Source of the DNA: Ohtaekwangia koreensis
Lineage (GTDB): Bacteria > Bacteroidota > Bacteroidia > Cytophagales > Cyclobacteriaceae
DNA: 64,000 nucleotides
Direction: 5' to 3'
Assembly: GCF_900167975.1 (NCBI RefSeq)
Contig: NZ_FUZU01000003.1
Coordinates: 744,001 to 808,000 of the forward strand
Shown here piece by piece: positions 32,896-64,000 of the stretch. A program made the position numbers and the translations under genes. The notes below the pieces were generated by a model, which worked only from the letters and a program-made list of their open reading frames with translations, ran no database searches and was not told the DNA's origin. Each line of letters starts with the position of its first letter. The stretch's first letter is position 1.

Positions 32896-33687
32896 ATGAA
32901 TTTCATCATCATCGAGGACGAACTGAAAACTGCCAAGTCACTACAGAATATGATCGTTGATATAAAACCCGAAGCTAAATTAATAGGTCAATATCAAAGT
33001 ATAGAACGTTCCGTGGAAGCACTCACGCAAGGCGTTGAACCGGATTTAATCTTCATGGATGTTCAGCTCGCAGATGGCCTCTGCTTCGAAATATTTAAGG
33101 CAGTTAAAATAAAATGTCCGGTGATATTTTGCACCGCATACGATGAGTACTCGCTTGACGCATTCAACAGCAACGGTATAGACTATATTGTTAAACCGGC
33201 TTCAAAAGAAGACATCCGCGAGGCGCTCACGAAGGTAGATGAACTCCGGAACTTCTTTCAACAAAAATCAACACCAGACCTGGAAGTTTTACTTTCAAAA
33301 CTTAGCCCACCCACTGGTAAAACCAGTTTCCTCGTCTTTAAGAATCAAAAATATACCACTGTCCAGATAGACAATATTGCATTCTTCTTTATTCGTAATG
33401 ATACAACATCCATTATGTGTTTCGACCGGCAGGAGTTTACGCTCAACCAGTCTCTCGATCAGATTACCAGCACCATTTCACCCAAGCAATTCTTCCGCGT
33501 AAACCGTCAATACCTGGTAAACTTCAAGGCGATTAAAGAAGTGGAGCATTATTTCCTGCGCAAACTATATGTTAAGCTGGTCATTGAAACGCCAGACAAA
33601 TTATTGATCAACAAAGAGAAATCTCACAACTTTCTAAGCTGGATGGAAAATCGTCACCGGCAGATATATGTTCATCTAAACTCTTAA
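32896..33687 (+). CDS. LytTR-family response regulator, orphan
   Basis: 263 residues. Receiver domain 1-120 with acidic pair ED (7-8), phosphoacceptor D55 in LIFMDVQLADG, Thr/Ala in FCTAYDEY and the Lys of IVKPAS; LytTR DNA-binding domain about 155-258 with FFRVNRQYLVNFKAIKEVEHY. The receiver is highly similar to that of the regulator at 50948, so they are paralogues. No histidine kinase is adjacent. It diverges from PUL 2, which makes it a candidate regulator of that locus. Its stop overlaps the 3-prime end of the convergent DUF4256 gene by 12 bp. Confidence 0.93.
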   Translation: MNFIIIEDELKTAKSLQNMIVDIKPEAKLIGQYQSIERSVEALTQGVEPDLIFMDVQLADGLCFEIFKAVKIKCPVIFCTAYDEYSLDAFNSNGIDYIVKPASKEDIREALTKVDELRNFFQQKSTPDLEVLLSKLSPPTGKTSFLVFKNQKYTTVQIDNIAFFFIRNDTTSIMCFDRQEFTLNQSLDQITSTISPKQFFRVNRQYLVNFKAIKEVEHYFLRKLYVKLVIETPDKLLINKEKSHNFLSWMENRHRQIYVHLNS

Positions 33688-34245
33688 CGAGCCTCGAAAT
33701 CCTCTGGCAGCGTAGTACGATTCTGCGCCATTGTGATACAGGAAGACATGATCATAACGGCAGTCGCAAAAAAGCGCACCGCCAAGTTTTCGAATGGCTG
33801 CAGGTGTCTTCACCCAACTTGATGTTTTCGTATCAAACTTTCCAAGTTTTTGCAATGCCCGGTATTCCTCCTCTGTCAAAAGTTCAATGCCGAAGGCATC
33901 TGCCAGATCTATAGCACTGTCCTTGGGTTTATTTTCTTTCCTTGAATCGAGCGCTTCACGATCGTAGCAAACACTCCTGCGGTCTTTGGGGCTCTCCGCT
34001 GAACAATCGTAAAAAATATATTCATCGGCCTTTTTATCGTAACCAACAACATCCGGTTCGCCACCCGTTCTTTCCATTTCACTGAGCGACCATAGCTTTT
34101 CAGTATTGGCCTCCAGCCTCGCATCCACATCCGCCCAATCAATACCTTTATGACGACTCATGTTTTTCTCAAAGCGTTTTTTCAATACACTGAGTAACTC
34201 TTCACGTTGCTCCAATGACAACTTCTTTTTATTGCCTTTGCTCAT
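33676..34245 (-). CDS. DUF4256 domain-containing protein
   Basis: 189 residues, cytoplasmic. Matches DUF4256 throughout: KGIDWADVDARLEANTEKLW, EMERTGGEPDVVGYD, YIFYDCSAESPKDRRSVCYD, FGIELLTEEEYRALQKLG and the C-terminal YHNGAESYYAARGFRG. The family is widespread but uncharacterised. It is the last gene of the ArsR-led operon, 10 bp after the SRPBCC gene, and its end overlaps the convergent LytTR gene by 12 bp. Confidence 0.9.
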   Translation of the reverse strand: MSKGNKKKLSLEQREELLSVLKKRFEKNMSRHKGIDWADVDARLEANTEKLWSLSEMERTGGEPDVVGYDKKADEYIFYDCSAESPKDRRSVCYDREALDSRKENKPKDSAIDLADAFGIELLTEEEYRALQKLGKFDTKTSSWVKTPAAIRKLGGALFCDCRYDHVFLYHNGAESYYAARGFRGSLRV

Positions 34246-42538: not shown

Positions 42539-45229
42539 ATGCTAAAATTACGAATCCTATCATGTCTGGTTGGCACTGTCTTGATATGTATTACTAATTT
42601 TTCATTTGCACAAAATGATTGCCCCGTGGTTGGCTGGGCAAGTCAGAACGGTGGAGTAACAGGAGGTGGAACCGTAGCAGCTGCTACGATTGTTACGAAT
42701 TACAACGACCTTAAAACAGCCATCACATCTACTGCCGTTAAAGTCATCAATATATCAGGAACGATTACAATACCTTCCGGTGGGCGACTAAGTCTCAAAG
42801 ACCAATCCGGAAAAACAATCTTTGGTTTACCGGGTTCGAAGTTGGTTTCAAGCGATCAGTCTGCAGACAATTCAGGTATACTATATATTCGGAACTGCTC
42901 GAATATAATATTCAAAAATGTGACGTTTGAAGGACCTGGCGCGTATGACGCTGATGGCTGGGACAACATGACACTGGATAATTGCACGAATGTATGGATA
43001 GATCATTGTGAATTTCAGGACGGCATGGATGGAAACTTCGATATTAAAAATTCATCAGACTATATTACTGTAACGTGGTGCAAATTCATATATAACAAAG
43101 CCCCACGAGCCGGTGGCCCGGGCGGAGCAGATGATCACAGGTTCTCTGACTTGTTCGGATCAAGTGATGGTACTACCACTGACCGGGGCAAACTTCGCGT
43201 AACCATGCAATATTGCTGGTGGGCTCAAGGCTGCAAAGCGCGTATGCCACGTGTACGTTTCGGTAAAGTACATATAGCCAACAATCTTTTCAACAGTACA
43301 GTTGCTGCCCAGTGCATACAGGCAGGGTTTGAAGCCGATCTATTGGTGGAAAGCAATGTGTTTGAAAATGTAAACAGACCCATCGACCTGATGGACAACA
43401 ACTTTACAGCGGTCACCGAAAAAAATAATAAGTTCTTAAGCACTACCGGAAACAAAGCAGGAAGCGGTACGGCCTTTACACCGCCCTATACATTAGATGT
43501 AACGCTTGTAGATAATGTGAAAGATACGGTTATAACGAATGCTGGAGCAACACTGACGTCTGCATCTTGTGATGTTACCACTCCGGTAACCTATACATTG
43601 AGTACTACAGCTACACCAACCGTAGGCGGAACCATTACCGGTGCAGGTACATATACTTCAGGAACTGTTGTGACAGTAAAAGCAACACCGGCTACCGGAT
43701 ATACCTTTACCGGATGGAGTGGTGATGCATCCGGGACAGATGCTACCATTACAGTAACCATGAGCGGTAACAAATCGGTGACTGCTAACTTTCAGGCGGA
43801 TGCGGCTACTCCTACAAACTATATACTTAGCACCACCGTCACACCAAACGCGGGTGGAACGATTAGTGGAGCGGGCACATATACTTCAGGAACTGTAGTG
43901 ACGGTAAAAGCAACACCGGCTACCGGATATACCTTTACGGGATGGAGTGGTGATGCATCAGGGACAAATGCTTCCATTACCGTAACCATGAGCGGTAACA
44001 AATCCGTAACTGCAAATTTTCAAGCGGATGCGGCTACTCCTACAAACTATACACTTAGCACCACAGCCACACCAGCTGCGGGTGGAACGATCACCGGTGC
44101 TGGTGCATATACCTCCGGAACAGTAGTGACGGTAAAAGCGACACCTGCCACTGGATATACTTTTACAGGATGGAGTGGTGATGCATCAGGGACAAATGCT
44201 TCCATTACCGTAACCATGAGCGGTAACAAATCTGTAACTGCAAATTTTCAAGCGGATGCGGCTACTCCTACAAACTATACACTTAGCACCACAGCCACAC
44301 CAGCTGCGGGTGGAACGATCACCGGTGCTGGTACATATACCTCCGGAACAGTAGTGACGGTAAAAGCAACACCTGCTACCGGATATACCTTCACAGGATG
44401 GAGTGGTGATGCGTCTGGTACAGCTACTTCTGTGACTGTAACCATGAGCGGCAACAAATCAGTGACTGCTAATTTTCAAGCGGATGCCGTTACGCCTACA
44501 AACTATACACTTAGCACCACGGCCACACCAACTGCGGGTGGCACAATCACTGGTGCGGGGACATATACTTCAGGCACTGCAGTGACGGTAAAAGCGACAC
44601 CTGCCACTGGATATACTTTTACAGGATGGAGTGGTGATGCATCAGGGACAGATGCTTCTGTAACGGTAACTATGAGCGGGAATAAATCAGTGACCGCGAA
44701 TTTTCAGGAGCAAGTTATTGCACCAGTAACGTATACGCTTAGCACAACATCTATACCTACTGGTGGTGGCACTATACTCGGTGCAGGGACATACGATGAA
44801 GGTACTGTCGTAACCGTAACCGTTACACCTTCCATCGGATATACATTTACCGGGTGGAGTGGCGATATATCAGACACCTCCCCTTCTGTTACAATAACGA
44901 TGAACAGCAATAAATCGATTATAGCAAACTTCGATGCGCAAAGTAGCGTGAGCACGATCGTAACACCACAAAAATTATTTTCCCCTGACAACCGAGGTGA
45001 CGCCACAACAGAAACATGGTTGATTGAGAATGCATACTTGCTGGACGGATGCGAAATTATAGTATACAACCGGCAAGGACAGAAAGTATATTCTTCTGTC
45101 GGATACCCATCGCCCTGGAACGGAACACTGGATGGAAGACCACTTCCGGATGGTGCATATTTTTACATCATCCGATATCCAAATCAGAAGAAACAAACAG
45201 GAAGTGTAACCATTGCAAGATTGAAATGA
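42539..45229 (+). CDS. Pectate lyase (PL1) with six internal beta-repeats and T9SS type B sorting domain
   Basis: 896 residues. Signal peptide 1-24; PL1 parallel beta-helix about 28-340 with the family motif VWIDHCEFQDGMDGNFDIKN and the Ca/substrate region (WWAQGCKARMPRVRFGKVHI). Then six tandem 76-residue bacterial-repeat domains (about 352-800; YTLSTTATP...GYTFTGWSGDASG...NKSVTANF), each encoded by a 228-bp repeat. The C-terminus (about 806-896, ending VYSS...WNGTLDGRPLPDGAYFYIIRY...TGSVTIARLK) is a CHU_C/T9SS type B domain. It should cleave polygalacturonan at or outside the cell surface. Its stop overlaps the start of the PorP/SprF gene by 4 bp (ATGA). Confidence 0.92.
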   Translation: MLKLRILSCLVGTVLICITNFSFAQNDCPVVGWASQNGGVTGGGTVAAATIVTNYNDLKTAITSTAVKVINISGTITIPSGGRLSLKDQSGKTIFGLPGSKLVSSDQSADNSGILYIRNCSNIIFKNVTFEGPGAYDADGWDNMTLDNCTNVWIDHCEFQDGMDGNFDIKNSSDYITVTWCKFIYNKAPRAGGPGGADDHRFSDLFGSSDGTTTDRGKLRVTMQYCWWAQGCKARMPRVRFGKVHIANNLFNSTVAAQCIQAGFEADLLVESNVFENVNRPIDLMDNNFTAVTEKNNKFLSTTGNKAGSGTAFTPPYTLDVTLVDNVKDTVITNAGATLTSASCDVTTPVTYTLSTTATPTVGGTITGAGTYTSGTVVTVKATPATGYTFTGWSGDASGTDATITVTMSGNKSVTANFQADAATPTNYILSTTVTPNAGGTISGAGTYTSGTVVTVKATPATGYTFTGWSGDASGTNASITVTMSGNKSVTANFQADAATPTNYTLSTTATPAAGGTITGAGAYTSGTVVTVKATPATGYTFTGWSGDASGTNASITVTMSGNKSVTANFQADAATPTNYTLSTTATPAAGGTITGAGTYTSGTVVTVKATPATGYTFTGWSGDASGTATSVTVTMSGNKSVTANFQADAVTPTNYTLSTTATPTAGGTITGAGTYTSGTAVTVKATPATGYTFTGWSGDASGTDASVTVTMSGNKSVTANFQEQVIAPVTYTLSTTSIPTGGGTILGAGTYDEGTVVTVTVTPSIGYTFTGWSGDISDTSPSVTITMNSNKSIIANFDAQSSVSTIVTPQKLFSPDNRGDATTETWLIENAYLLDGCEIIVYNRQGQKVYSSVGYPSPWNGTLDGRPLPDGAYFYIIRYPNQKKQTGSVTIARLK
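43592..44940 (+). repeat. Six tandem 228-bp repeats inside the pectate lyase gene
   Basis: Repeat starts at 43592, 43820, 44048, 44276, 44504 and 44732. Copies 1-5 are nearly identical at the DNA level in their second half (GGATGGAGTGGTGATGC and neighbours); the sixth is divergent. They encode 76-residue modules of the bacterial-repeat/InlB-B type. Confidence 0.9.
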
Positions 45230-49479: not shown

Positions 49480-49929
49480 GATTGTGATTAAATAAGGTTA
49501 AGTAGTAATTGACGTTTACATTTATACAGGTATTTCAACGCCTATATATTTAGTATTCTTAGCCGCAAAGTTGATATGTGCCAGATACGGTTACAATGGT
49601 GAATACCGGATTTATAAAAATCAGGTCTTAGAAATTATCGTAAGGTCAACATCTGGAGAGGTGCGTGATTGGAGGATTCTTTTTACGGGATATACTTAAA
49701 AAATCTAAGGGTTTACCTTAGCTCTAAAAAACAAGCATTTTTCAAACGTTTAAAATATCTTTCAAGCGGATCGCTTGCAGTTCAGGGAACAGTCGGTATA
49801 TAACAACAATGACCTATAGCAATATCTTTAGGTAACTGTCAGGTACGATTACATTAATCTCAGTGTCGATTTTGTCCGCTTCACTTAAATAAGTATGTTC
49901 TATGAGGTTAGAGGTGTATTTTTGCATCT
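49480..49929. other. Divergent regulatory region between the TonB receptor and the LytS gene
   Basis: 450 bp with no gene. Contains TTCAAACGTTTAAAA (49741-49755, LacI-like dyad), the shared box at 49866-49887 and the LytS promoter at 49917-49924. Confidence 0.6.
49866..49924 (+). promoter_or_regulatory. LytS promoter with upstream box TTTTGTCCGCTTCACTTA
   Basis: The 18-bp box TTTTGTCCGCTTCACTTA (49870-49887) lies 29 bp upstream of a good -7 box TATTTTTG (49917-49924), which is only 5 bp before the start codon at 49930; a transcript from here would be almost leaderless. The same 18 bp recur at 51863-51880 upstream of the beta-barrel gene. Confidence 0.65.
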
Positions 49930-50973
49930 ATGGAGCTAAAGCTACCCATTAAAAATCTGATCCGGCTCAATTGGCTACTATCACTGATCCCCAGCGTTAT
50001 TGTCTGTATTTTCCTCCTGCACGACAAGGCACAGACACATGTCATTCACATCACCATAATGACAGCAATCGCCATTGCAACCATCGGACTCAGTAATATC
50101 TATATTATCGTTGTCCTGGCGCAAAGATTTGAAATCAGCTCCCGGAAATTCAAACTGTATCGCTACCTGCTAACGTATACAGCCAGTGCTATAGCATACT
50201 TAATCATCTGGCCAACGTTTGTCTTTTTCACAAATTACATTACCTCTTCCTACGTTCTATACGACTTTATTCTCTTGGGTATAGGAAGTGCAATGGTCAA
50301 TTCATTGATTGTGGTGTTCCACAACTTTGTTCTCTTACAAAGCGAAAAGGCACATGCCGATCTTGAATTCTCCAAGCTTAAAACCGCTCATGCAGAAGCT
50401 GCCAACCTGCTCTTAAAACAACAAATACATCCGCACTTCCTATTCAATGCACTCAATACGGTAAAGGCGCTATACCGGACCGATTCACGCGCGGGCGATT
50501 CATACATTGTTCATCTGGCAAATTTTTTACGAGCTTCTGTCTTTAGTCACTCCAGCAAAATATCTTTACTGGAAGAAGAGTTATCGCTTTTAAAAGATTA
50601 TCTGGAAATGCAGAAGATCCGTTTTGGTGACGCACTCGACTGTTCAATTTCAATTCCTGAAAATATACTGAAAAGCTTTTCTCTTCCCTCCTTTTCACTC
50701 CAGCCGTTGTTGGAGAATGCTATAAAACATAATGAACTGACAGAAGAAGCACCGTTAAAAGTATATATATGCAAAAAAGACGACCGTATTATCGTTTCTA
50801 ACAATCTACAAAAAAAGATGGTGAATGTCTCATCGACCAATCACGGGCTGGCTAACCTGGCAGAACGATACAGGATTTGGTCAGGCGATGAAGTGATCAT
50901 AAAAGAAGATGACCGTACATTTTCTGTAAGTATAAAATTGCTAGCAAATGAAAATAGTAATCATCGAGGATGA
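49930..50973 (+). CDS. LytS-type (His_kinase/HATPase) sensor histidine kinase
   Basis: 347 residues. Four transmembrane helices (about 13-30, 42-64, 82-102, 113-134) form the sensor; then a coiled coil, the phosphoacceptor motif QQIHPHFLFN (His169), and the ATPase domain with N-box LLENAIKHNELTEE and G-box HGLANLAERY. It is the PF06580 type that pairs with LytTR regulators; the regulator gene overlaps by 26 bp. Its promoter carries a box shared with two neighbours. Confidence 0.95.
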   Translation: MELKLPIKNLIRLNWLLSLIPSVIVCIFLLHDKAQTHVIHITIMTAIAIATIGLSNIYIIVVLAQRFEISSRKFKLYRYLLTYTASAIAYLIIWPTFVFFTNYITSSYVLYDFILLGIGSAMVNSLIVVFHNFVLLQSEKAHADLEFSKLKTAHAEAANLLLKQQIHPHFLFNALNTVKALYRTDSRAGDSYIVHLANFLRASVFSHSSKISLLEEELSLLKDYLEMQKIRFGDALDCSISIPENILKSFSLPSFSLQPLLENAIKHNELTEEAPLKVYICKKDDRIIVSNNLQKKMVNVSSTNHGLANLAERYRIWSGDEVIIKEDDRTFSVSIKLLANENSNHRG

Positions 50974-51709
50974 AAGGGTTGTCGCGAATGACCTTGAGGC
51001 AAGTATACGGCAATTGGTGGAATCCACCATTGTACAGCTTCACTCGGTTAAAGAAGCGATCGCGTATTTTAAGAAAGGAAATATACCAGACCTGATCTTT
51101 AGCGACATTCAATTAGGTGACGGGCTTAGCTTCGAAATATTCATAGCCGTGCCTCAAACCGCACCGGTGATATTTTGCACAGCCTATAATGAATACGCAC
51201 TGGATGCTTTCCGTGTCAATGGCATTGACTATATTTTAAAACCCTTCACGGTAGACACTCTGGAACGTTCCTTACACAAATACACCCAGCTAAAAAAAAT
51301 CTTCGCACCAGACCAGAGTCTCAGTTATAGCTCAATGATCAAGATGCTGACCGAGCGCAACCCCGACCGCGCTGCATCGGTGCTGGTATATCACCAGGAT
51401 AAAATTATACCAGTTAAACTGGAAGACACCGCTTTATTTTATCTCGAGAATGAAGTCACGCACCTGCTAACGTTTTCCGGCAAGATGTACTATCCCAACA
51501 AGAAACTTGATGAACTTGAGCAATTAACCGGAAATTTATTTTTCAGAGCCAATCGTCAATTTCTGGTCTCTCGTAAGGCTATATCTGATGTATCCAGTTT
51601 TTTCTCCCGGAAACTTTCTGTTAACCTGACTATACCCTTCAAAGAAAAAATTATGGTTAGTAAAGTAAAATCTCCTGTATTCCTGGAATGGTTGTCCAAA
51701 ACCGTCTGA
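50948..51709 (+). CDS. LytTR-family response regulator (partner of the 49930 kinase)
   Basis: 253 residues. Receiver with D53 in LIFSDIQLGDG, FCTAYNEY and ILKPF; LytTR domain about 150-250 (FFRANRQFLVSRKAISDVSSF). The 26-bp overlap with the kinase gene means translational coupling. It is a paralogue of the orphan regulator at 32896. Likely targets are the TonB receptor, the beta-barrel gene at 51973 and itself, given the shared box. Confidence 0.95.
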   Translation: MKIVIIEDERVVANDLEASIRQLVESTIVQLHSVKEAIAYFKKGNIPDLIFSDIQLGDGLSFEIFIAVPQTAPVIFCTAYNEYALDAFRVNGIDYILKPFTVDTLERSLHKYTQLKKIFAPDQSLSYSSMIKMLTERNPDRAASVLVYHQDKIIPVKLEDTALFYLENEVTHLLTFSGKMYYPNKKLDELEQLTGNLFFRANRQFLVSRKAISDVSSFFSRKLSVNLTIPFKEKIMVSKVKSPVFLEWLSKTV

Positions 51710-51858
51710 CATAGTCCACAGTCGATTTTCGTTAAGTAACTTCGGGCAGATAATATCATTACAGCGGTTCGCAGTGCCATTATCTATATAGCTAATTATT
51801 TCATTACGGGCACACGTTGCTTTCTCCACCCCTAAGTACATATCCGACAGCTTCGCTA

Positions 51859-51919
51859 TCGCTTTTGTCCGCTTCACTTATTTCCTTCTTTCTGCAGCCG
51901 TATAAACCCTACATCTTTG
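51859..51919 (+). promoter_or_regulatory. Second copy of the 18-bp box before the beta-barrel gene
   Basis: TTTTGTCCGCTTCACTTA (51863-51880) is identical over 18 bp to the box before the LytS gene (and 21 of 22 counting flanks). CATCTTTG (51912-51919), a near -7 box, lies 31 bp downstream, the same geometry as before LytS. The gene starts at 51973. Confidence 0.65.
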
Positions 51920-51972
51920 ATCCATACATACACAAGCTTTCGCTTGATGTAAAAAACATTAAATGTACTGAT

Positions 51973-52548
51973 ATGAAAAAGTTAATTATTGTATGTCTCA
52001 TGCTGGCGTCTGCCAACACTTTTGCACAATCCATTTTAAAGCGGTTAAGCTTCGGACTCAAGGCGGGTGCCAACTATAGCAATTTCACCAACGCTGATTT
52101 TTCAACGGATCCATTGGTTGGATTTCATGCAGGGGCGTTGGTTAATCTCAAATTGACGGACAAGTTTTCGATACAAGAGGAATTTCTGTTCTCGTCTCAA
52201 GGAGCAAAATTCAAAGAAGATTTTTTAGGCAACAAAGAGATCAAGATATATTATCTGAACGTTCCTATACTCCTTAAGTACCGGACAAATATGGGACTAT
52301 ATTTTGAAGCCGGCCCCCAAGTAAGCATGCGCCTCAGTGAAGATATGGAGAATATGCCGGAAAAAGATTTTTCACAGCAAATTGATGTGGGTGTTGCAGG
52401 AGGACTGGGATATCAATCGAAAACTGGCTTTGGCATTGGCGTACGATACTGTGCTGGGCTATCAAAAGTTGCCAACTTCGAAATCGGGAACACCAAGCCT
52501 GAATTTAGAAACGATGTAGCACAGGCAAGCATCTTTTATATCTTCTAA
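51973..52548 (+). CDS. PorT/outer-membrane beta-barrel family protein
   Basis: 191 residues from the ATG at 51973 (MKKLIIVCLM); a longer in-frame reading upstream has no signal peptide. Signal cleavage near FAQS. Then eight-strand barrel pattern: LSFGLKAGANYSNFTN, VGFHAGALVNLKLTDKFSIQEEFLFSSQGAKF, YLNVPILLKYRTNMGLYFEAGPQVSMRLS, ending with an aromatic residue (FYIF). This is the PorT-type barrel (PF13568) of Bacteroidota. Shares its promoter box with the adjacent LytS gene, so it is a likely target. Function unknown. Confidence 0.88.
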   Translation: MKKLIIVCLMLASANTFAQSILKRLSFGLKAGANYSNFTNADFSTDPLVGFHAGALVNLKLTDKFSIQEEFLFSSQGAKFKEDFLGNKEIKIYYLNVPILLKYRTNMGLYFEAGPQVSMRLSEDMENMPEKDFSQQIDVGVAGGLGYQSKTGFGIGVRYCAGLSKVANFEIGNTKPEFRNDVAQASIFYIF

Positions 52549-52615
52549 TTATATATTAAAGACCGTTCTGAATTAAAGGTTTGGGATAGGGGTATTCAGC
52601 CAGGTTCAGAAAGTC

Positions 52616-52647
52616 ATCCCGGTTTCGAAAGAAAACGGGATTTTTTT
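52616..52647 (+). terminator. Intrinsic terminator after the beta-barrel gene
   Basis: ATCCCGGTTTC (52616-52626) pairs with GAAAACGGGAT (52631-52641) with one mismatch and a GAAA loop, followed by seven T. A classical terminator. Confidence 0.88.
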
Positions 52648-52770
52648 GTCAGGACTCTAATCTCGAATGAAATGATAACCTTATATCAGTATACACATCG
52701 CTCCAAATCCGTTCATCACCAGTAGTTCAAGCTAAAATATTCAAAGGTATATATTCCGCCTCCATTTGCA

Positions 52771-52827
52771 TTCTGTCCGCCTAGATGACTTTCCCGCTAT
52801 AGATGATCCGTTATCGATTTAACTTTA
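52771..52827 (+). promoter_or_regulatory. Third, weaker copy of the box before the orphan ATPase gene
   Basis: TTCTGTCCGC (52771-52780) keeps the core of the 18-bp box, and TAACTTTA (52820-52827), one base from TAnnTTTG, lies 31 bp downstream of the box end, as in the other two promoters. The gene starts at 52855. Confidence 0.45.
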
Positions 52828-52854: not shown

Positions 52855-53388
52855 ATGCATAAAAACCACGAGGAATTACAGTTGCTTCAGAAACAAGGCG
52901 AAGCGTGTCTGACAAATGTAACCGACTTCTTAAAAACATTCATTGCCAATCCGATTTCCAAAATTGTTAGATTGGAAGAGGAGTTGATGTTTTGCAAGGC
53001 CTATATTGAAATACAACAACTGCTGTTCAGAAATGCGTTGACCTACGAAATAGATCTGTCGTTGGATATCACGCTGGAGAAATTTGTTCCGCATTTCTCC
53101 ATTTATACGTTGTTGGAAAACGCTATCCGACATAATCACTTTACTGAAGAATCTCCATTGAAAATAATTATTGTCACTGAAGGCGACTACTTAAAAGTTA
53201 TCAACAACCTCCATCCTCAAAAAAGCATGGAGTCTCCCACAGGTCAAGGTCTATTAAATCTTGCGGAACTGTATCGTCTTCTTTCCGGAGACGAAATACA
53301 TATCCTTCAAAGTAAAAATTATTTTACAGTACACATAAAGCTATTTAACAATGAAGCATATCCATTCGAGGAAGCCTATATCTATTGA
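52855..53388 (+). CDS. Orphan LytS-type HATPase domain protein lacking the phosphoacceptor histidine
   Basis: 177 residues, cytoplasmic, no transmembrane helix. From residue 20 on it aligns with the 49930 kinase: LTNVTDFLKTFIANPISKI to IVHLANFLRASVFSHSSKIS, then LEEEL, then N-box LLENAIRHNHFTEESPLK (87-103) against LLENAIKHNELTEEAPLK, and G-box GQGLLNLAELY (130-140). The segment that would carry QxHPHFLFN is absent, so it cannot autophosphorylate. It may bind ATP and modulate its parental kinase, or be a decayed kinase kept by chance. Its promoter region carries a version of the shared box. Confidence 0.8.
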   Translation: MHKNHEELQLLQKQGEACLTNVTDFLKTFIANPISKIVRLEEELMFCKAYIEIQQLLFRNALTYEIDLSLDITLEKFVPHFSIYTLLENAIRHNHFTEESPLKIIIVTEGDYLKVINNLHPQKSMESPTGQGLLNLAELYRLLSGDEIHILQSKNYFTVHIKLFNNEAYPFEEAYIY

Positions 53389-53487: not shown

Positions 53488-55017
53488 TTAGTGATTAGGT
53501 GCTGTTGAGGTTACGCGTAATGCGCTACCCATGATTGTACCATTGAAATGATTTGACGACTGATCAACAACAGTTGTACCGGAAGCTTCATCAAAATTCC
53601 AGTATCCTGTTAAACCTGTTTCATTCCCTACCAACAGTTGATTTTTATATTGATTGATTTCAGTAACCGTGAGCGCTTTGGTCCACACCGATACATCATC
53701 TATCGTTCCTTTAAAGAAGTAGTTTATTCCATTGGTAAGTTTCTTGCCGATCTTCGCTGTAGAAGGATCGCTTGTGCTCATTGTATAAGAAGATGAACCT
53801 TGTAAAGTTCCCCCTACATTTACTCCGTCAACATATAAATCAACGTCTGATATACCTTTTAGAACCGCAGTAACATATTTCCAGTTATTGGTAAGTCCTG
53901 TAACGCTGGCAGATCTTCCTCTTCTGTATGCAGAATTGTTTCCACCACGGCCATCACCGTACTCTGCAAATACATTTGTACTGGTAACCGCAAACCAGAA
54001 ACCTTTATATACAGTAGTATTTTCCTGACTTACAAATATAGGGCCTGTAGCCGGGATGGTTGGATCTATATTTACCCATGCCGAGACGGTTATCGGGAAT
54101 GTAGTCGTATTGAGAATATCACCAAGATCAACGTAATCATTTACACCATCAAATTGAATTGCTCCGTTGATACAACGATTGGGTGCACTTGATGCTATGC
54201 GTTCTGCGTTTCCGAATATTGTACCATTATAATGATTAGGCGATGAATCCAATACGGTTGTACCAGACGCTTCATCAAAATTCCAATAGGCAAGAAGTCC
54301 GGTTTCACTTCCGCTCAGCGTTTGGTTCATATACTGATTTATTTCAGTAGTTGTTAAAGCTTTGCCCCAGATCGAAACATCATCCATCAAGCCTTTAAAA
54401 TGGTATATAAATCCATTGATCGAACGTTTACCGATCTTTGCTGTAGCAGGATCATTGGAGCTCATGGTTGAATTTGAACTCCCTTCAATTGTACCTCCAA
54501 CATTTACGCCATTAACGTATATCTCAATGTCATTTATACCTTTGAGAACAGCCGTTACAAATTTCCAGCTATTGGTAATGTTGCCAACGTTAGCCGATCT
54601 TCCTCTTCTGTATGAAGGATCATTGCCTCCTGCTCCGTCACCATATTCAGCATATACATTTGTATTGGTTGTAGCAAACCAGAAGCCTTTGTAAGTAGTC
54701 GTATTATCCTGGCTGGATACTATAGGCTGACTGCCGGTTACGGTTGAATCTACATTTACCCATGCAGCCACCGTAACGGGGAAAGTTGTTGTATTTAGAA
54801 TGTCTCCGAGATCAATGTAATCATCTACGCCATCAAATTTTATAGCCCGGTTGGTACATCCTGGTGGCACTAAACGTGCAGATGCAAGTGCGTTGTCTGT
54901 AGATGGCGCTGGCTCGCGCTTGCTTACTTCGTAATCATCGTAATTATCACACGACACTACAGCAAACAATACTATACATAACAGAGAATGAAAATACTTA
55001 AAAGAATAATTTGTCAT
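53488..55017 (-). CDS. Lipoprotein with two tandem LamG (concanavalin A-like) domains
   Basis: 509 residues. Lipobox VVSCDN (Cys23). Two LamG/laminin-G-3 modules of about 227 residues repeat almost in full: AIKFDGVDDYIDLGDILNTTTFPVTVAAWVNVD versus AIQFDGVNDYVDLGDILNTTTFPITVSAWVNID, through LLAYWNFDEASGTTVLDSSPNHYNGTIFG. LamG domains bind carbohydrates or mediate adhesion; no enzyme domain is attached. The gene lies downstream of a LytTR regulator on the same strand with a long intergenic region that holds a promoter and three repeats. Probably a regulated surface protein. Confidence 0.88.
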   Translation of the reverse strand: MTNYSFKYFHSLLCIVLFAVVSCDNYDDYEVSKREPAPSTDNALASARLVPPGCTNRAIKFDGVDDYIDLGDILNTTTFPVTVAAWVNVDSTVTGSQPIVSSQDNTTTYKGFWFATTNTNVYAEYGDGAGGNDPSYRRGRSANVGNITNSWKFVTAVLKGINDIEIYVNGVNVGGTIEGSSNSTMSSNDPATAKIGKRSINGFIYHFKGLMDDVSIWGKALTTTEINQYMNQTLSGSETGLLAYWNFDEASGTTVLDSSPNHYNGTIFGNAERIASSAPNRCINGAIQFDGVNDYVDLGDILNTTTFPITVSAWVNIDPTIPATGPIFVSQENTTVYKGFWFAVTSTNVFAEYGDGRGGNNSAYRRGRSASVTGLTNNWKYVTAVLKGISDVDLYVDGVNVGGTLQGSSSYTMSTSDPSTAKIGKKLTNGINYFFKGTIDDVSVWTKALTVTEINQYKNQLLVGNETGLTGYWNFDEASGTTVVDQSSNHFNGTIMGSALRVTSTAPNH

Positions 55018-55427: not shown

Positions 55428-55431
55428 TCAG
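55336..55431 (-). promoter_or_regulatory. LamG gene promoter with three direct repeats spaced 21 bp
   Basis: On the minus strand TACTTTTG (55336-55343) fits the -7 consensus; the -33 element is weak (TTTT at 55363-55366). Upstream lie three direct repeats, plus-strand GCGTCAG at 55383-55389 and 55404-55410 and ACGTCAG at 55425-55431, spaced exactly 21 bp. They cover about -52 to -101, as expected for an activator of LytTR type; the third overlaps the end of the adjacent LytTR gene. Confidence 0.65.
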
Positions 55432-56195
55432 GCAGGGCTACTATAATTCAGTGCCTCCAGAACTTCGGCTTTTTTACTGTGGGCAACATCTATATTCTTC
55501 GCGTTCGACATCACCAGAACCCCTCCCCTTCCTTTCAGATATCTTTTAACATACTTTATATTCACAAGGTATTTTTGATGTACCCGAATGAAAGTATCCT
55601 GCGGCAGCATTCGTTCATAGTCTTTCAATGTTTTGCTGGATATAATTTTACTGTCATCATTCAAATAGAAGGTGGTATAATTTCTATCGCCTTCACAATA
55701 CAAAATGGAATGTATAGTAATGATCTCAAGGCCGTTCAGTGATGGTATAGCAAGTTGTTCCGGGTATTGTTTCCGGCTGGCAAGCTGTTCCCGTAACAAG
55801 TCAAGAATTTTGTGGGTAACACGTATATCCTTATCCTTCACACGCGATACTGCAGTCGTCAGTTCTTGCACATCGATCGGTTTTAGTAAATAATCAAGCG
55901 CATAATTTTTAATGGCGTTGATTGCATAGTGATTATGCGCGGTTATAAAGATAATTTCGGCTGCAGTAGCTCCTATTTCCTTTAACAGATCAAACCCAGA
56001 CCCCGAAGGCATTTCTATATCCAGGAAAATAACCTGTGGATTCATGCTCACGATTAATGATTTTCCTGCAGATACAGAATCCGCTTCTCCAATAACTTTT
56101 ATATCAGGACAATGCTTTTCAAGCATGCTCTGTAAAATTTCTCTGGAGCTTTGCTCGTCATCTATAATAACGGCTGATATTTTCTGACTGCTCAT
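55428..56195 (-). CDS. LytTR-family response regulator
   Basis: 255 residues. Receiver with acidic pair DD (12-13), D59 in VIFLDIEMPSGSGFD, TAHNHY and LLKPID; LytTR domain about 150-250 (TFIRVHQKYLVNIKYVKRYLKG). The gene follows its kinase with a 6-bp gap. It is of the AlgR/LytR group that differs from the two paralogous regulators at 32896 and 50948. The triple repeat near its end is a candidate binding site. Confidence 0.95.
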   Translation of the reverse strand: MSSQKISAVIIDDEQSSREILQSMLEKHCPDIKVIGEADSVSAGKSLIVSMNPQVIFLDIEMPSGSGFDLLKEIGATAAEIIFITAHNHYAINAIKNYALDYLLKPIDVQELTTAVSRVKDKDIRVTHKILDLLREQLASRKQYPEQLAIPSLNGLEIITIHSILYCEGDRNYTTFYLNDDSKIISSKTLKDYERMLPQDTFIRVHQKYLVNIKYVKRYLKGRGGVLVMSNAKNIDVAHSKKAEVLEALNYSSPA

Positions 56196-56201
56196 AAATA
56201 A

Positions 56202-59150
56202 TTATATAGATGGAATCTTAAATGTTACCAATGTGCCGGGATGATTACCGTACTCGTCTTCCAAATCCTCAATGGACAATTCTATTTTCTGTTTACGTTC
56301 GAAGTTAATGATCTCGATTCTGTCTCGGATGAGATTTATACCTTTGGAACGATGATTCTTTTTTAATGAAAATGATTTCTTTCTGCCGATACCATTATCC
56401 CGCAACGTTATGATAATAAACTCGTGACCCATCGCCAATTGAATAGTGAGTTTTTGATCGCTGGCCGTATGCTGAAATCCGTGCCAAATGGAATTCTCAA
56501 TAAAAGGCTGAAGAATCATAGAAGGCATTTCCTGCGTATAGATATCTAACGCAGGATCTACATCTATACTATATGTAAAGCCATAATTCATCCGGAGCTT
56601 TTCTATTTCGAGGTAATTTGTAATGGACGCAAGTTCTTCGTGTATAGGAATTGTGATCTCTTCGGATTGATCTAAAATGGATCGCATGAGTTTGCCGAAT
56701 CGTCCCAGGTATTCCTGCGCCATTACGATATCATTTCTCAGGAACAATGCATGAATGGAATTCAAGGCGTTAAAAATAAAATGAGGATTCATCTGCGCAC
56801 GCAATGTTCTGAGCTCCGACACAAGTGCCCGCTGTTGCCACATTGCCTTTGTTCTTTGCTGACGAAGATAAAAAGCAATTCCACCCCAAGCCACTGCAAT
56901 CAAGAGACCGATTACGGAGAGTATAAAAAAATTACTTCGCCAGAATGGCTTCTTTATAGTAAAAGAAAGTGAAACTTCCTTACTCCAGATTCCCGACCTG
57001 CCTTTGGCCGCCACTATAAATTCATATTCACCCCAGGACAATTCGGGTAAATAAACAAAAGGATCGCGCGTATACTTCCATGGGGAGTCACGATGCAATT
57101 TATACCGATATAGTACTTCTCCTATACTATTATACAACGGGCTTACATACTTAATCTCGACATCATTTTCAGAATGGTTGAAAATCAAACTTTCCATCTG
57201 AGGCAAATAACGTTTGCCGTGAACGGTGATGTGATCTATATAGATCAAGGGTTGTATTGTATCTTGTATGGACAGATGCCGATCAAAAAAATTTAGTCCC
57301 TTATTCGTAGCCACCCATACAGTATCCTTAAGCACTAACAAATCCGTTATTTCATTGGTAAGCATTCCGTCCAGTACAGTATAGTGCTCTATTTTAAGCT
57401 TATCAGGATAGCCCGTTATTTTATTAACGCCATTGCTCGTGGCTACCCATATAGCACCACTGGCATCGGCTGAGATTGCATTGCAGACACCACTGGTCAA
57501 GCCTTGCTCCTCGCCAACGGTAACATATTTTTCATGCTTGTCGAAGAATATAACTCCATCACCATTGGTAGCCAGCACCAGGGTTGTATCCGATAATTCC
57601 TCAAAATCGTTTACTTGTACCTTGTCGTTAAATCTTTCCGGGTTAACGGCTATCAAAGAATCATCTATAGCTTTATAGAGATGTTTGTCTGTGGAGATCC
57701 ACATGGTATTCTGTTTATCCAGGAAGAACGCATTAGACCGTTCTCTCTTTAAGACACCATAATTTCCATAACCAAGTTTGCAGTCGGAAGGAAGAACGGT
57801 TACATCATTTTTATAGGCTTCATAAATGCTTCTGCTTAGTACAAACACCCGGTCACTCGCTCCAAGCCACAGTTCACCTTGTGGATGTTCAATCATTTCT
57901 CGCACATTGCCACAGAGTAACGTGGTTGAATTCCTCTCTAACAGATATAGCCCTACCTGGGAGGCAATCCAACATCTACCTCCATTAAAATGGATTTTGC
58001 GTATTCTGCAATCTTCTTTAACGGCATTATTTGCAATGGGTATAGAACGCATGCGTCCATGACGATATATACCGACAACACCATCTTCATATCCGAACCA
58101 TAGTGCGTTGGCAGGGTCCTTGGACAAGCACGATATCTTACTTGAAACCAATCCATCAGCAACGGTATAACTAAATATATCTTTCCCTGAGCAAAAGAAA
58201 ATGCCGCCATCCAGAGTAGTAATCCAGCAATTTCCTTCCCGGTCGCGTATTACAGAAGAGATCTTATACGCCTGCAAGAAGGGAGTCAGGAATTTTCGGG
58301 TAATTTTGGAATAAGGTATAACACCCTTATTTGTACAAATCCAAATATTGTCGTGATCCTGACCTATATTATAAACAGACAGTGTACTTGATGCCGGGCG
58401 CATAAATACACTGAACGTATCATCTTGCAGATTCCCTGCATAAACATGACCATGGCTACTATACAATATATCATGTTGACTTAGTTGAGCGCTTCGGGGG
58501 AGTTGCAAATTAGCCGTTGTTAACAAATGACACGTGTCCGTTTCCAAGATCGCATCCTGCTTTTCGTTCATTTGTACTTTATATATACCGGTTCTTGACA
58601 CGATCGCAATTCTGCTGTTTCCTATTGAAAAAATGTCGTTGATGGATTCAAAGTCATTGTTGTGAAAAAAACGATGGATTTGTTTGTTCCGTGAATAATT
58701 GACGATGCCATCTCTTAACGTTGATATCCACACAGTGCCTTGCGCATCCTCGAACATCCCGGAGATGTAGGATTGTGAATCCAGTAGCCTTAGCGTTGTA
58801 TCTGTTGATGAATTGGTGATGAAGCCGTCTTTGAAGTAAGATACCTTTCCATTCAAGGTTCGAAACCATATTCTATCGCTGCTGTCCTCAAAGAAATTAA
58901 AGACTTCGTTATCCGATAATCCATCGCGAATGGTAAGATGCGAAAAGGTATATCCATCGTATCGGCTTACTCCAAGGGGTGTACCAAACCACATAAAGCC
59001 TTTGCTATCCTGAAACGATGCATATATAGTATTGGAAGGCAAACCATTGTCGGTCGTGTAGTTCTTGTAACTGCGACTTTGTGAATGGCTTTCAAATGTG
59101 GTAAAGGTATAAAGGACAGAAAGCAGCAAAAAATAAATACTACGAGGCAT
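56202..59150 (-). CDS. Two-component sensor with beta-propeller repeats and LytS-type kinase domain
   Basis: 982 residues. Signal peptide (about 1-24), then around 14 Reg_prop beta-propeller repeats (YASFQDSKGFMWFGTPLGVSRYDGY, FEDSSDRIWFRT, ISADASGAIWVATSNGVNK) to about residue 650, a Y_Y_Y domain (about 690-765), one transmembrane helix (about 752-775), and the kinase: phosphoacceptor QMNPHFIFN (His790), N-box ENSIWHG (885-891), G-box DNGIG (918-922). Periplasmic propeller sensors of this kind recognise glycan fragments in the HTCS relatives; here the output is a separate LytTR regulator. Confidence 0.93.
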   Translation of the reverse strand: MPRSIYFLLLSVLYTFTTFESHSQSRSYKNYTTDNGLPSNTIYASFQDSKGFMWFGTPLGVSRYDGYTFSHLTIRDGLSDNEVFNFFEDSSDRIWFRTLNGKVSYFKDGFITNSSTDTTLRLLDSQSYISGMFEDAQGTVWISTLRDGIVNYSRNKQIHRFFHNNDFESINDIFSIGNSRIAIVSRTGIYKVQMNEKQDAILETDTCHLLTTANLQLPRSAQLSQHDILYSSHGHVYAGNLQDDTFSVFMRPASSTLSVYNIGQDHDNIWICTNKGVIPYSKITRKFLTPFLQAYKISSVIRDREGNCWITTLDGGIFFCSGKDIFSYTVADGLVSSKISCLSKDPANALWFGYEDGVVGIYRHGRMRSIPIANNAVKEDCRIRKIHFNGGRCWIASQVGLYLLERNSTTLLCGNVREMIEHPQGELWLGASDRVFVLSRSIYEAYKNDVTVLPSDCKLGYGNYGVLKRERSNAFFLDKQNTMWISTDKHLYKAIDDSLIAVNPERFNDKVQVNDFEELSDTTLVLATNGDGVIFFDKHEKYVTVGEEQGLTSGVCNAISADASGAIWVATSNGVNKITGYPDKLKIEHYTVLDGMLTNEITDLLVLKDTVWVATNKGLNFFDRHLSIQDTIQPLIYIDHITVHGKRYLPQMESLIFNHSENDVEIKYVSPLYNSIGEVLYRYKLHRDSPWKYTRDPFVYLPELSWGEYEFIVAAKGRSGIWSKEVSLSFTIKKPFWRSNFFILSVIGLLIAVAWGGIAFYLRQQRTKAMWQQRALVSELRTLRAQMNPHFIFNALNSIHALFLRNDIVMAQEYLGRFGKLMRSILDQSEEITIPIHEELASITNYLEIEKLRMNYGFTYSIDVDPALDIYTQEMPSMILQPFIENSIWHGFQHTASDQKLTIQLAMGHEFIIITLRDNGIGRKKSFSLKKNHRSKGINLIRDRIEIINFERKQKIELSIEDLEDEYGNHPGTLVTFKIPSI

Positions 59151-62853: not shown

Positions 62854-64000
62854 ATGAAAAAGATCTATCTGAGTATTGTATTCTGCATAGGAGTACTCCA
62901 CGGAATACTGGCGCAAAATATTGGAATCAATGCTTCGGGAAGCGCTCCTGCACCGTCCGCTATGCTTGATGTTTCTTCTACTAACTCTGGCCTCTTAATA
63001 CCGCGCGTAGCACTAACAGCAATCAATTCAAGCTCACCAGTCACATCACCTGCTACAAGTCTTTTGGTATATAACACTGCAACCGCAGGAACATCTCCTA
63101 ACAATGTTATTCCAGGATATTATTTTTGGAATGGCAGTACATGGTCGCTGCTGATCGCGGCATCATCTTCGGGCAGAGTAGGTATAGGCAATACCGCTCC
63201 TACAGAAGCGCTCGATGTAACAGGAAATTTTCGTTTCAGTGGTGCATTCATGCCTAATAATAGTGCCGGCACAGCGGGATATATATTGCAATCCAACGGT
63301 ACGGGTACTGCTCCCACATGGGTTTTACCTTCCACCGTTGCCGCAACCACAAGCTGGCTCCAGAATGGAAATAGTATAGCAACTTCTGCAAGATCGATTG
63401 GTACAACCACCAACTTTGCACTTCCTTTCATTACAAATAACGTAGAGAGAATGCGCCTAACAGAAACCGGGAATCTCGGTATCGGTAATGCCGCTCCAAC
63501 AGAAGTGCTTGATGTCACTGGAAATCTTCGTTTCAGTGGTGCACTCATGCCTAACAACAGCGCAGGTACAACAGGGTATCTATTGCAATCCAACGGTACG
63601 GGTACTGCTCCCACATGGGTTTTGCCTTCCACGGTTGCCGCAACCACAAGCTGGCTCCAGAATGGAAATAGTATAGCAACTTCTGCAAGATCGATTGGTA
63701 CAACCACCAACTTTGCACTTCCTTTCATTACAAATAACCTAGAGAGAATGCGCCTGACAGAAACCGGGAATCTCGGTATCGGATCCAGTACATTTGATGG
63801 TACAAATCCAGAAAAATTATTAGTGGATGCAGGAACAACAACCTCCTATAATTTAATGATGGGCAGAGGTAGTATTAACAGCTATCTGCAGATCAATATA
63901 AAGAATAACTCTGCGGCCGGTAGCGCCAGTTCCGACCTCGTGGCTACTGCGAACAATGGCACTGAGTCGGTAAACTATATAGATATGGGTATAAATTCCA
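62854..64000 (+). CDS. Tail-fibre/adhesin-like repeat protein, C-terminus cut by window edge
   Basis: 382 residues to the edge. Signal peptide 1-21 (ending ILAQN). The pattern NIGINASGSAPAPSAMLDVSSTNSGLLIPRVAL is a common N-terminal block of Bacteroidota secreted proteins that resemble phage tail fibres; two tandem 99-residue units follow, each with GIGNTAPTEALDVTGNFRFSG. Such proteins often end in an intramolecular chaperone (peptidase S74) domain, which would lie outside this window. No other phage genes are near, so it is probably a host surface fibre. Confidence 0.8.
   Translation, partial: MKKIYLSIVFCIGVLHGILAQNIGINASGSAPAPSAMLDVSSTNSGLLIPRVALTAINSSSPVTSPATSLLVYNTATAGTSPNNVIPGYYFWNGSTWSLLIAASSSGRVGIGNTAPTEALDVTGNFRFSGAFMPNNSAGTAGYILQSNGTGTAPTWVLPSTVAATTSWLQNGNSIATSARSIGTTTNFALPFITNNVERMRLTETGNLGIGNAAPTEVLDVTGNLRFSGALMPNNSAGTTGYLLQSNGTGTAPTWVLPSTVAATTSWLQNGNSIATSARSIGTTTNFALPFITNNLERMRLTETGNLGIGSSTFDGTNPEKLLVDAGTTTSYNLMMGRGSINSYLQINIKNNSAAGSASSDLVATANNGTESVNYIDMGINS
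63181..63774 (+). repeat. Tandem 297-bp duplication in the tail-fibre-like gene
   Basis: 63181-63477 and 63478-63774 encode two 99-residue units. The later two thirds of the copies are almost identical at the DNA level (for example ACGGGTACTGCTCCCACATG in both), so the duplication is recent. Confidence 0.9.

What the first reader, a model, noticed from the sequence alone, without database searches (positions are those of the whole stretch)
49866..52827. A shared promoter box links a LytS/LytTR pair, a beta-barrel gene and an orphan ATPase gene
TTTTGTCCGCTTCACTTA is present twice without a mismatch (49870 and 51863) and once in degenerate form with the core TCTGTCCGC (52771). In all three cases a -7-like box (TATTTTTG, CATCTTTG, TAACTTTA) lies 29-31 bp downstream and a gene start follows. 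An 18-bp exact repeat is not expected by chance in 64 kb. The simplest reading is the binding site of the LytTR regulator encoded at 50948, used for autoregulation and for the two neighbours. I do not know a published consensus matching it.
Basis: partly seen in the sequence, partly recalled or inferred. Interest (0 to 1): 0.7.

Follow-up and report, generated by a model that had tools for sequence, protein, structure and literature searches.

The report
Conserved switch box of LytTR regulator
Three short DNA boxes sit in front of a bacterial sensor–regulator gene pair and its two neighbouring genes, and matching boxes recur beside related regulators in other Bacteroidota, so they are very probably the regulator's own docking sites: a clear case of a known kind of switch, in a version I found no description of.

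Summary
TTTTGTCCGCTTCACTTA occurs exactly at 49870 and 51863, with a degenerate form at 52771, each 29-31 bp before a -7-like box and then a gene start. Each is the downstream half of a LytTR-type direct repeat with a 21-bp period; the upstream half is clear at sites 2 and 3, weak at site 1.

A matrix trained on 74 sites of other genomes ranks the three sites first, second and third in the window (40.8, 33.1, 22.0 bits; next 7.8). A profile of those sites puts sites 2 and 1 on top in the 7.24-Mb genome but misses site 3. The box precedes orthologous kinase operons and PF13568 barrel genes in Mucilaginibacter, Pedobacter and others. In five untrained genomes of one genus, 13 of 13 hits at E<=1e-4 lie within 4 kb of a LytS/LytTR pair.

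Best reading: binding site of the LytTR protein at 50948, for autoregulation and two neighbours. The 'orphan ATPase' is a kinase fragment without the H-box histidine. The architecture is known; the consensus was not found in print. Binding and direction of regulation are untested.

The parts
49855..49884 (+). Site 1: LytTR-type direct repeat before the kinase-regulator operon; downstream half CCGCTTCAC 49876-49884 (inside the 18-mer 49870-49887), weak upstream half 49855-49863
   Evidence: rank 2, 33.1 bits; E 1.1e-3 genome-wide; block 49853-49883 is 31 of 31 identical in the sister genome, but its surroundings are 93%; upstream half only 5 of 13 matches at lag 21
49917..49924 (+). -7 box TATTTTTG of the operon; start expected 4-5 nt later, i.e. 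at or next to the ATG 49930 (leaderless mRNA predicted)
   Evidence: sequence; -7 rule and start distance from PMC6847099 (passages)
49930..50973 (+). LytS-type sensor kinase, 347 aa, His_kinase PF06580, H-box HPHFLFN at residues 167-173
50948..51709 (+). Response regulator with receiver and LytTR domains, 253 aa; overlaps the kinase gene by 26 nt; D8, D53, T78, K98 present
51848..51877 (+). Site 2: direct repeat CAGCTTCGC - 12 bp - CCGCTTCAC before the beta-barrel gene
   Evidence: rank 1, 40.8 bits; E 3.9e-5 genome-wide; 9 of 13 matches at lag 21
51912..51919 (+). -7-like box CATCTTTG of the beta-barrel gene
51973..52548 (+). Outer-membrane beta-barrel protein, 191 aa, PF13568
   Evidence: homologues with the same box in other genomes
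52756..52785 (+). Site 3: degenerate direct repeat CCGCCTCCA - 12 bp - CCGCCTAGA before the kinase-fragment gene
   Evidence: rank 3, 22.0 bits; 9 of 13 matches at lag 21; counterpart in the sister genome reported by the profile (E 4.5e-4); not reported in the own genome
52820..52827 (+). -7-like box TAACTTTA of the fragment gene
52855..53388 (+). Truncated LytS-type kinase, 177 aa: keeps part of the second dimerisation helix and the ATP-binding domain, lacks membrane segments and the H-box
   Evidence: dN/dS 0.21 against the sister genome

Best explanation
The three boxes are operators of the LytTR response regulator encoded at 50948-51709. Each is a pair of about 9-bp direct repeats, consensus (T/C)CCG(C/T)TTC(A/G) for the better, downstream one, 21 bp apart (9-12-9), whose downstream repeat ends 32-34 bp before the -7 box, about 10 bp upstream of the -33 region. 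The kinase at 49930 probably phosphorylates the regulator (established for the families, not shown here). A regulator dimer then binds the two repeats on one DNA face and most likely activates the promoter (inferred from position and from characterised LytTR systems). Targets: the kinase-regulator operon itself (autoregulation, probably positive, mRNA predicted leaderless), the beta-barrel gene, and a truncated-kinase gene that may tune the signal. Shown here: the repeats, the near-constant promoter distance, the conservation, and the association with this regulator clade. Inferred: binding, phosphorylation, activation, the fragment's role.
For: A matrix from 74 outside sites (own genome and sister left out) ranks the window sites 1, 2, 3; next 7.8 bits. 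Lag -21 is the best direct-repeat offset (z 5.5); the inverted orientation gives no comparable peak. A matrix from 21 barrel-gene promoters alone finds the box before the kinase in 47 of 78 loci above the highest of 78 reversed-sequence controls. Own genome: sites 2 and 1 are the two best profile hits; the next two lie inside ORFs. Phylum sample of 296 genomes, E<=1e-4: 16 hits in 7 genomes; one is the own site 2, two belong to a training genome, and the other 13, in five untrained genomes of one genus, all lie within 4 kb of a LytS/LytTR pair. A new hit in the Chitinophaga genome of L081 (8.9e-7) adjoins a second such pair (regulator 52%). Six of 7 further loci with a 40-46% regulator hold a matrix hit above their reversed control. 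Site blocks 2 and 3 are 88% and 84% identical to the sister genome against 63% in the intergenic DNA before them.
Against: No binding or expression data. Site 3 is degenerate and not reported by the profile in the own genome. Site 1 has a poor upstream half (5 of 13 matches, a level reached at 27% of window positions), its conservation is uninformative, and its profile E-value (1.1e-3) is no better than false-looking hits in relatives: G009 has one at 3.5e-4 inside an ORF, and of 18 such weaker hits examined only one (G033) adjoins a LytS/LytTR pair. In Chitinophaga one new hit at 3.1e-5 has no such pair within 6 kb. The box was not found before the kinase in 31 of 78 loci; no matrix hit of 10 bits or more was found near the regulator in L246; box presence changes 14 times on the regulator tree. 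Training sites were chosen by a fixed core, so the core's invariance is built in. Profile searches scored only part of the candidates (16 per genome, 81, 150).
Confidence: 0.85

Rival explanations
1. The boxes are bound by another regulator, encoded elsewhere, that controls the whole locus including the kinase-regulator operon.
For: No binding data exist; 31 other LytTR matches are in the genome, and LytTR repeats of different systems resemble each other (PMC6193735, passages).
Against: The box accompanies this regulator clade in several genera and no like site was found in the 30 fetched loci of other LytTR genes of this genome. Among 58 relatives searched, the close regulator orthologue and a set of three boxes occur together only in the sister G005.
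Confidence: 0.1
2. The box is a general promoter element (extended -33 or UP-like) of strong Bacteroidota promoters.
For: It sits at a near-constant distance upstream of a -7 box: 28 of 34 exact TAnnTTTG found within 90 nt of the cores start 45-48 nt after the core start.
Against: Few profile hits: four up to E 10 in 7.24 Mb and 16 up to 1e-4 in 296 genomes; these are lower bounds because candidates were capped. The published -33 signal is TTTG or AT-rich (PMC6847099, passages).
Confidence: 0.02
3. The two exact 18-mers are a recent local duplication of a promoter fragment without a regulatory role.
For: They are identical over 18 bp, and both 18-mers are unchanged in the sister genome.
Against: Bases on either side differ; counterparts at both genes exist in other genera in diverged form; the block at site 2 is conserved above its upstream flank.
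Confidence: 0.03

Closest known systems
LytTR regulatory systems (LRS) with direct-repeat autoregulation, e.g. HdrR/BrsR of Streptococcus mutans (PMC6193735; passages seen)
   Same: 9-bp direct repeats mostly 12 bp apart, most often 10 bp upstream of the -35 element, before the regulator's own operon; repeats such as ACCGCTTAT resemble CCGCTTCA here.
   Different: LRS pair a LytTR regulator with a membrane inhibitor; here a LytS kinase and a receiver-LytTR regulator, and a Bacteroidota-type promoter.
LRS-like operons of Bacteroides thetaiotaomicron and B. ovatus (PMC6193735, Table 3; passages seen)
   Same: Direct repeats (11 bp, 11 bp apart) 11 bp before TGTA or TGTG - 19 bp - TATCTTTG: nearly the same geometry in the same phylum.
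   Different: Repeats TCCGGTATTCA/ACCGGAAATCA and a close variant; membrane-bound regulator with an NfeD-like partner, no kinase.
BtsS/BtsR and YpdA/YpdB of gamma-proteobacteria (PMC5552118; passages seen)
   Same: LytS/LytTR two-component pairs with conserved binding motifs, target gene in some species close to the pair.
   Different: Pyruvate-responsive; the regulator here is far below NCBIfam's BtsR cut-off (72 against 246 bits); the target here is an outer-membrane barrel.
Kinase domain of GanS (PDB 6swj, 6swk)
   Same: Best Foldseek match of the modelled kinase fragment (E 3.1e-9, query TM-score 0.62).
   Different: The fragment lacks the H-box and the membrane part.

Membership tests
LytS/LytTR two-component system | Kinase with PF06580 domain and H-box | tested here: met
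   PF06580 E 3.7e-22; HPHFLFN at 167
LytS/LytTR two-component system | Response regulator with receiver and LytTR domains and the phospho-acceptor residues | tested here: met
   PF00072 and PF04397 above cut-off; D8, D53, T78, K98 (roles of these residues recalled)
LytS/LytTR two-component system | Phosphotransfer from kinase to regulator | not testable with these tools
   needs biochemistry
LytTR direct-repeat operator | Two direct repeats of about 9 bp with a period of 21-22 bp | tested here: met
   lag -21 best, z 5.5 over 74 outside sites; in the window clear at sites 2 and 3 (9 of 13), weak at site 1 (5 of 13)
LytTR direct-repeat operator | Repeats just upstream of the promoter at a near-constant distance | tested here: met
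   28 of 34 exact TAnnTTTG within 90 nt start 45-48 nt after the core start; in the selected 76 sites, searched at 44-49 nt, 69 are at 46-47
LytTR direct-repeat operator | Bound by the regulator | not testable with these tools
   needs EMSA or footprinting
LRS (regulator plus membrane inhibitor) | Membrane inhibitor protein instead of a kinase | tested here: not met
   partner is a PF06580 kinase
BtsR / LytR equivalogs | NCBIfam cut-off reached | tested here: not met
   BtsR 72.1 of 246, LytR 80.0 of 375 bits
Functional LytS kinase (for the 52855 gene) | H-box histidine | tested here: not met
   absent in the window copy and in L017
Functional LytS kinase (for the 52855 gene) | ATP-binding domain motifs | tested here: met
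   LLENAIRHN and the GLxNLAExYR region align with the 30 kinases of A2; model pLDDT 80 matches kinase domains; ATP binding itself untested

The most novel reading that the evidence does not exclude
The 52855 gene is a kinase fragment without the H-box histidine that the regulator switches on through site 3, and its product feeds back on the LytS kinase (as a decoy ATP-binding domain, a mixed-dimer blocker, or a phosphatase helper): a built-in limiter inside a small cassette of sensor, regulator, barrel and limiter that was acquired horizontally together with its operators.
Probability: 0.25. Interest if true: 0.6.

Novelty: new member of a known kind. Interest (0 to 1): 0.4.

Why it matters
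LytTR regulators are numerous here (32 matches in this genome), but my paper searches showed no described operator for a kinase-coupled one in Bacteroidota. The box gives a testable operator, a promoter geometry for that phylum's unusual primary sigma factor, and a way to read regulons by sequence: in relatives it stands before genes for barrels, TolC-like, HlyD-like and TonB-dependent proteins and DUF2141 and DUF4397 proteins, which points to envelope or export functions, though in one other genus it precedes hydrolase, cupin and DoxX genes.

Tried and rejected
18-mer with up to 3 mismatches over the genome: 16 hits against 16 for the reversed pattern; only the two exact copies stand out. Loose gapped pattern: 27+28 hits against 19+21 for the control, no useful signal. 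The fourth-best matrix hit in the window, 34070, lies inside an ORF on the other strand (33676-34245) with a poor -7 box: taken as chance. The two next profile hits in the genome lie inside ORFs, antisense (I read them as prfB-like and Rrf2-like from recall, no database call). Weaker profile hits in relatives (E 3.5e-4 to about 0.05): of the 18 fetched outside G000 and G005, 11 lie inside ORFs of 120 aa or more and one (G033) adjoins a LytS/LytTR pair, so most are background (for L174 that script used a wrong position, L252 gives the right one). A first script that guessed kinase starts missed many and was replaced. Idea that the fragment is a recent copy of the neighbouring kinase: rejected; 39% identity and a long branch of its own, while the neighbour groups with Mucilaginibacter and Pedobacter kinases. 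Regulator tree: I had ignored the strand of the ten own-order rows, so eight dropped out and one was mistranslated; one search repeats it with all ten rows read correctly and the placing of the window regulator stands. The count of 14 box changes comes and was not repeated. Box strings in papers: 34 papers hold one of five strings; the 30 listed look unrelated by title, and I opened none.
Full report
Observation. The exact 18-mer is at 49870-49887 and 51863-51880, and a degenerate copy at 52771. The -7-like boxes follow after 29, 31 and 31 bp, and ATGs at 49930, 51973 and 52855. An exact 18-bp repeat alone is moderate evidence (4 of 60 Markov-1 sequences held one). The genome-wide 3-mismatch search adds nothing beyond the two exact copies.

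Genes. 49930-50973 is a LytS-type kinase (PF06580), 50948-51709 a receiver-LytTR regulator overlapping it by 26 nt, 51973-52548 a PF13568 barrel, and 52855-53388 a short PF06580 match without the H-box.

Relatives. A search with the regulator gave 268 relatives, of which the best 80 were kept as L017-L096. Core TTG[TC]CCG[CT]TT occurs 115 times in them against 23 for the reversed core; of 34 exact TAnnTTTG within 90 nt of the cores, 28 start 45-48 nt after the core start. Of 111 occurrences with enough flank, 76 have at least 5 of 6 -7 positions at 44-49 nt, 69 of these at 46-47. The core is invariant in these by selection; the columns outside it are not selected, and they show a second copy (CCGnTTCA-like, TTC strongest) 21 bp upstream. 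The lag -21 score stands 5.5 sd above other offsets; the inverted orientation shows no comparable peak.

What the box precedes. Leaving out the sister genome L017, 74 sites: 31 before kinases like the local one, 21 before barrels like the local one, 22 other or no gene. Twenty of those 22 have a gene and were scanned with Pfam: DUF2141 4, TonB plug 3, OEP (TolC-like) 2, OMP_b-brl_3 2, HlyD-type 2, DUF4270, DUF6268, DUF4397 and SnoaL 1 each, no hit 3. In 21 of 31 kinase genes the chosen ATG lies 4-6 nt after the -7 box. In F. johnsoniae probable promoters have the start 4-5 nt after that box (PMC6847099, passages), so these mRNAs are predicted leaderless; in F. psychrophilum 5.5% of mRNAs are (PMC9723704, passages).

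Tests. (1) A matrix from the 74 outside sites puts the window sites first, second and third (40.8, 33.1, 22.0 bits; fourth 7.8). The best score in 30 fetched loci of other LytTR genes of the own genome, which has 32 LytTR matches, is 8.1; those loci reach about 1.5 kb to each side, so promoters further off were not seen. (2) A matrix from the 21 barrel promoters alone finds the kinase-promoter box above the highest reversed-sequence control in 47 of 78 loci (two of 80 lacked upstream DNA): 24 of 26 in L017-L043, 23 of 52 beyond. (3) Profile R1 of the 74 sites over the own genome: sites 2 and 1 lead (E 3.9e-5, 1.1e-3), then 0.043 and 0.12, both inside ORFs; site 3 is not reported; 150 of 2205 candidates were scored. 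Other relatives have weaker or similar single hits, the best 3.5e-4 in G009 inside an ORF; of 18 such hits looked at, one (G033) adjoins a LytS/LytTR pair. E-values near 1e-3 are therefore background level, and site 1 rests on the matrix, its position and its conservation in other genera rather than on its E-value. (5) Over 296 genomes of the phylum, 16 hits at E<=1e-4 in 7 genomes. One is the own site 2, two lie in a training genome (G323), and 13 in five untrained genomes of a single genus; these 13 all lie within 4 kb of a LytS/LytTR pair (regulator 39-42% identical), but they are not independent of each other. Sixteen candidates per genome were scored, so the count is a lower bound. (6) In seven genomes of training loci the strong hits are almost all the known ones; two new hits below 1e-4 appear, both in Chitinophaga: one (8.9e-7) between a second LytS/LytTR pair and a TolC-like gene, one (3.1e-5) with no such pair within 6 kb. 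(7) Ten of the other 295 genomes have a regulator match at E<=1e-52 (9 or fewer candidates scored per genome). Three of them have boxes at E<=1e-4. In the other seven I fetched the locus: six hold a matrix hit above the reversed control of the same stretch, L246 none of 10 bits or more. Some of the six are weak: in L243 the -7 box fails, in L244 the repeat scores low, in L249 the hit lies 4.7 kb from the pair.

Conservation. Between the own genome and L017 the blocks at sites 2 and 3 are 28 of 32 and 27 of 32 identical, the intergenic DNA before them 63%; site 1 is 31 of 31 in a region of 93%, which says little. dN/dS: kinase 0.059, regulator 0.031, barrel 0.052, fragment 0.207. The fragment is thus kept as a protein, under weaker constraint.

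Origin. Among 58 relatives (6 of the same genus, 30 more of the family, 22 of the order), a regulator of 98% and a fragment of 90% occur only in G005; the next regulator is 48%, whereas Mucilaginibacter and Pedobacter loci reach 72% and 68%. In the tree with ten own-order regulators the window regulator falls in a fully supported set of 27 rows that holds none of these ten; in the earlier tree that set consisted of Mucilaginibacter, Pedobacter, an unnamed Sphingobacteriales record and one Dyadobacter. Horizontal acquisition of the cassette with its operators is likely but was not tested against a species tree.

Fragment. It aligns to the second helix of the dimerisation domain and the ATP-binding domain and lacks the H-box. 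Its model (pLDDT 80) matches kinase domains, best GanS. It is not a recent copy of the neighbouring kinase. A decoy or limiter role is my inference.

Mechanism. LytTR proteins of S. mutans LRS bind 9-bp direct repeats 12 bp apart just upstream of the promoter and activate their own operon (PMC6193735, passages). Here the downstream repeat ends 32-34 bp before the -7 box; with the 4 + 19 bp of the Bacteroides promoters in that paper's Table 3 this is 9-11 bp before the -33 region, the same geometry. I therefore expect direct, positive control of all three promoters.

Novelty. The kind is known. Searches for LytTR with Bacteroidetes (23 papers), Bacteroidota (7), direct repeat and binding site (0), Flavobacterium and promoter (2), Mucilaginibacter or Pedobacter (141 papers with two of three terms; the 15 listed do not contain LytTR), consensus and regulon terms (82, 20 listed), YpdB/BtsR/AgrA terms (12), and for box strings (34, 30 listed) showed no title describing this operator. 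I opened PMC6193735, PMC9723704, PMC6847099, PMC5552118 and PMC10269533, by passages only. The library lacks most subscription papers.

Noticed in passing
G005:C77:137424 (L231:4925-4998) and G000:C6:2989092-2989381: In the sister genome a fourth box hit (E 0.0025) precedes a DUF4397 gene, 42% identical to a box-bearing gene of Flavobacterium sp. CF136 (L095). In the own genome only C-terminal pieces of this gene were found, with no box nearby.
   Followed up: partly
window 32896-33687: A receiver-LytTR regulator, 40% identical to the local one, with no kinase ORF next to it and no convincing box.
   Followed up: partly
window 55428-59150: A second LytTR regulator beside a 982-aa protein that looks like a propeller-type sensor kinase (my reading of the sequence, no family search of it); no box hit there.
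   Followed up: no
window 53488-55017: Protein with two Laminin_G_3 stretches; its weak match to a neurotoxin receptor-binding Pfam model is probably only the shared lectin-like fold.
   Followed up: no
window 43649-44650 and 63284-63782: Dense exact repeats (18-mers and longer), seen while counting chance repeats.
   Followed up: no
L224, L226, L227, L228, L229: In five genomes of one other genus the box stands before alpha/beta hydrolase, epoxide-hydrolase, cupin and DoxX genes rather than barrels, so the regulon's content differs there.
   Followed up: partly
L066, L085: Records titled Methanosarcina and Thalassovita hold regulators that group with Bacteroidota ones: probably mis-binned contigs.
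   Followed up: no
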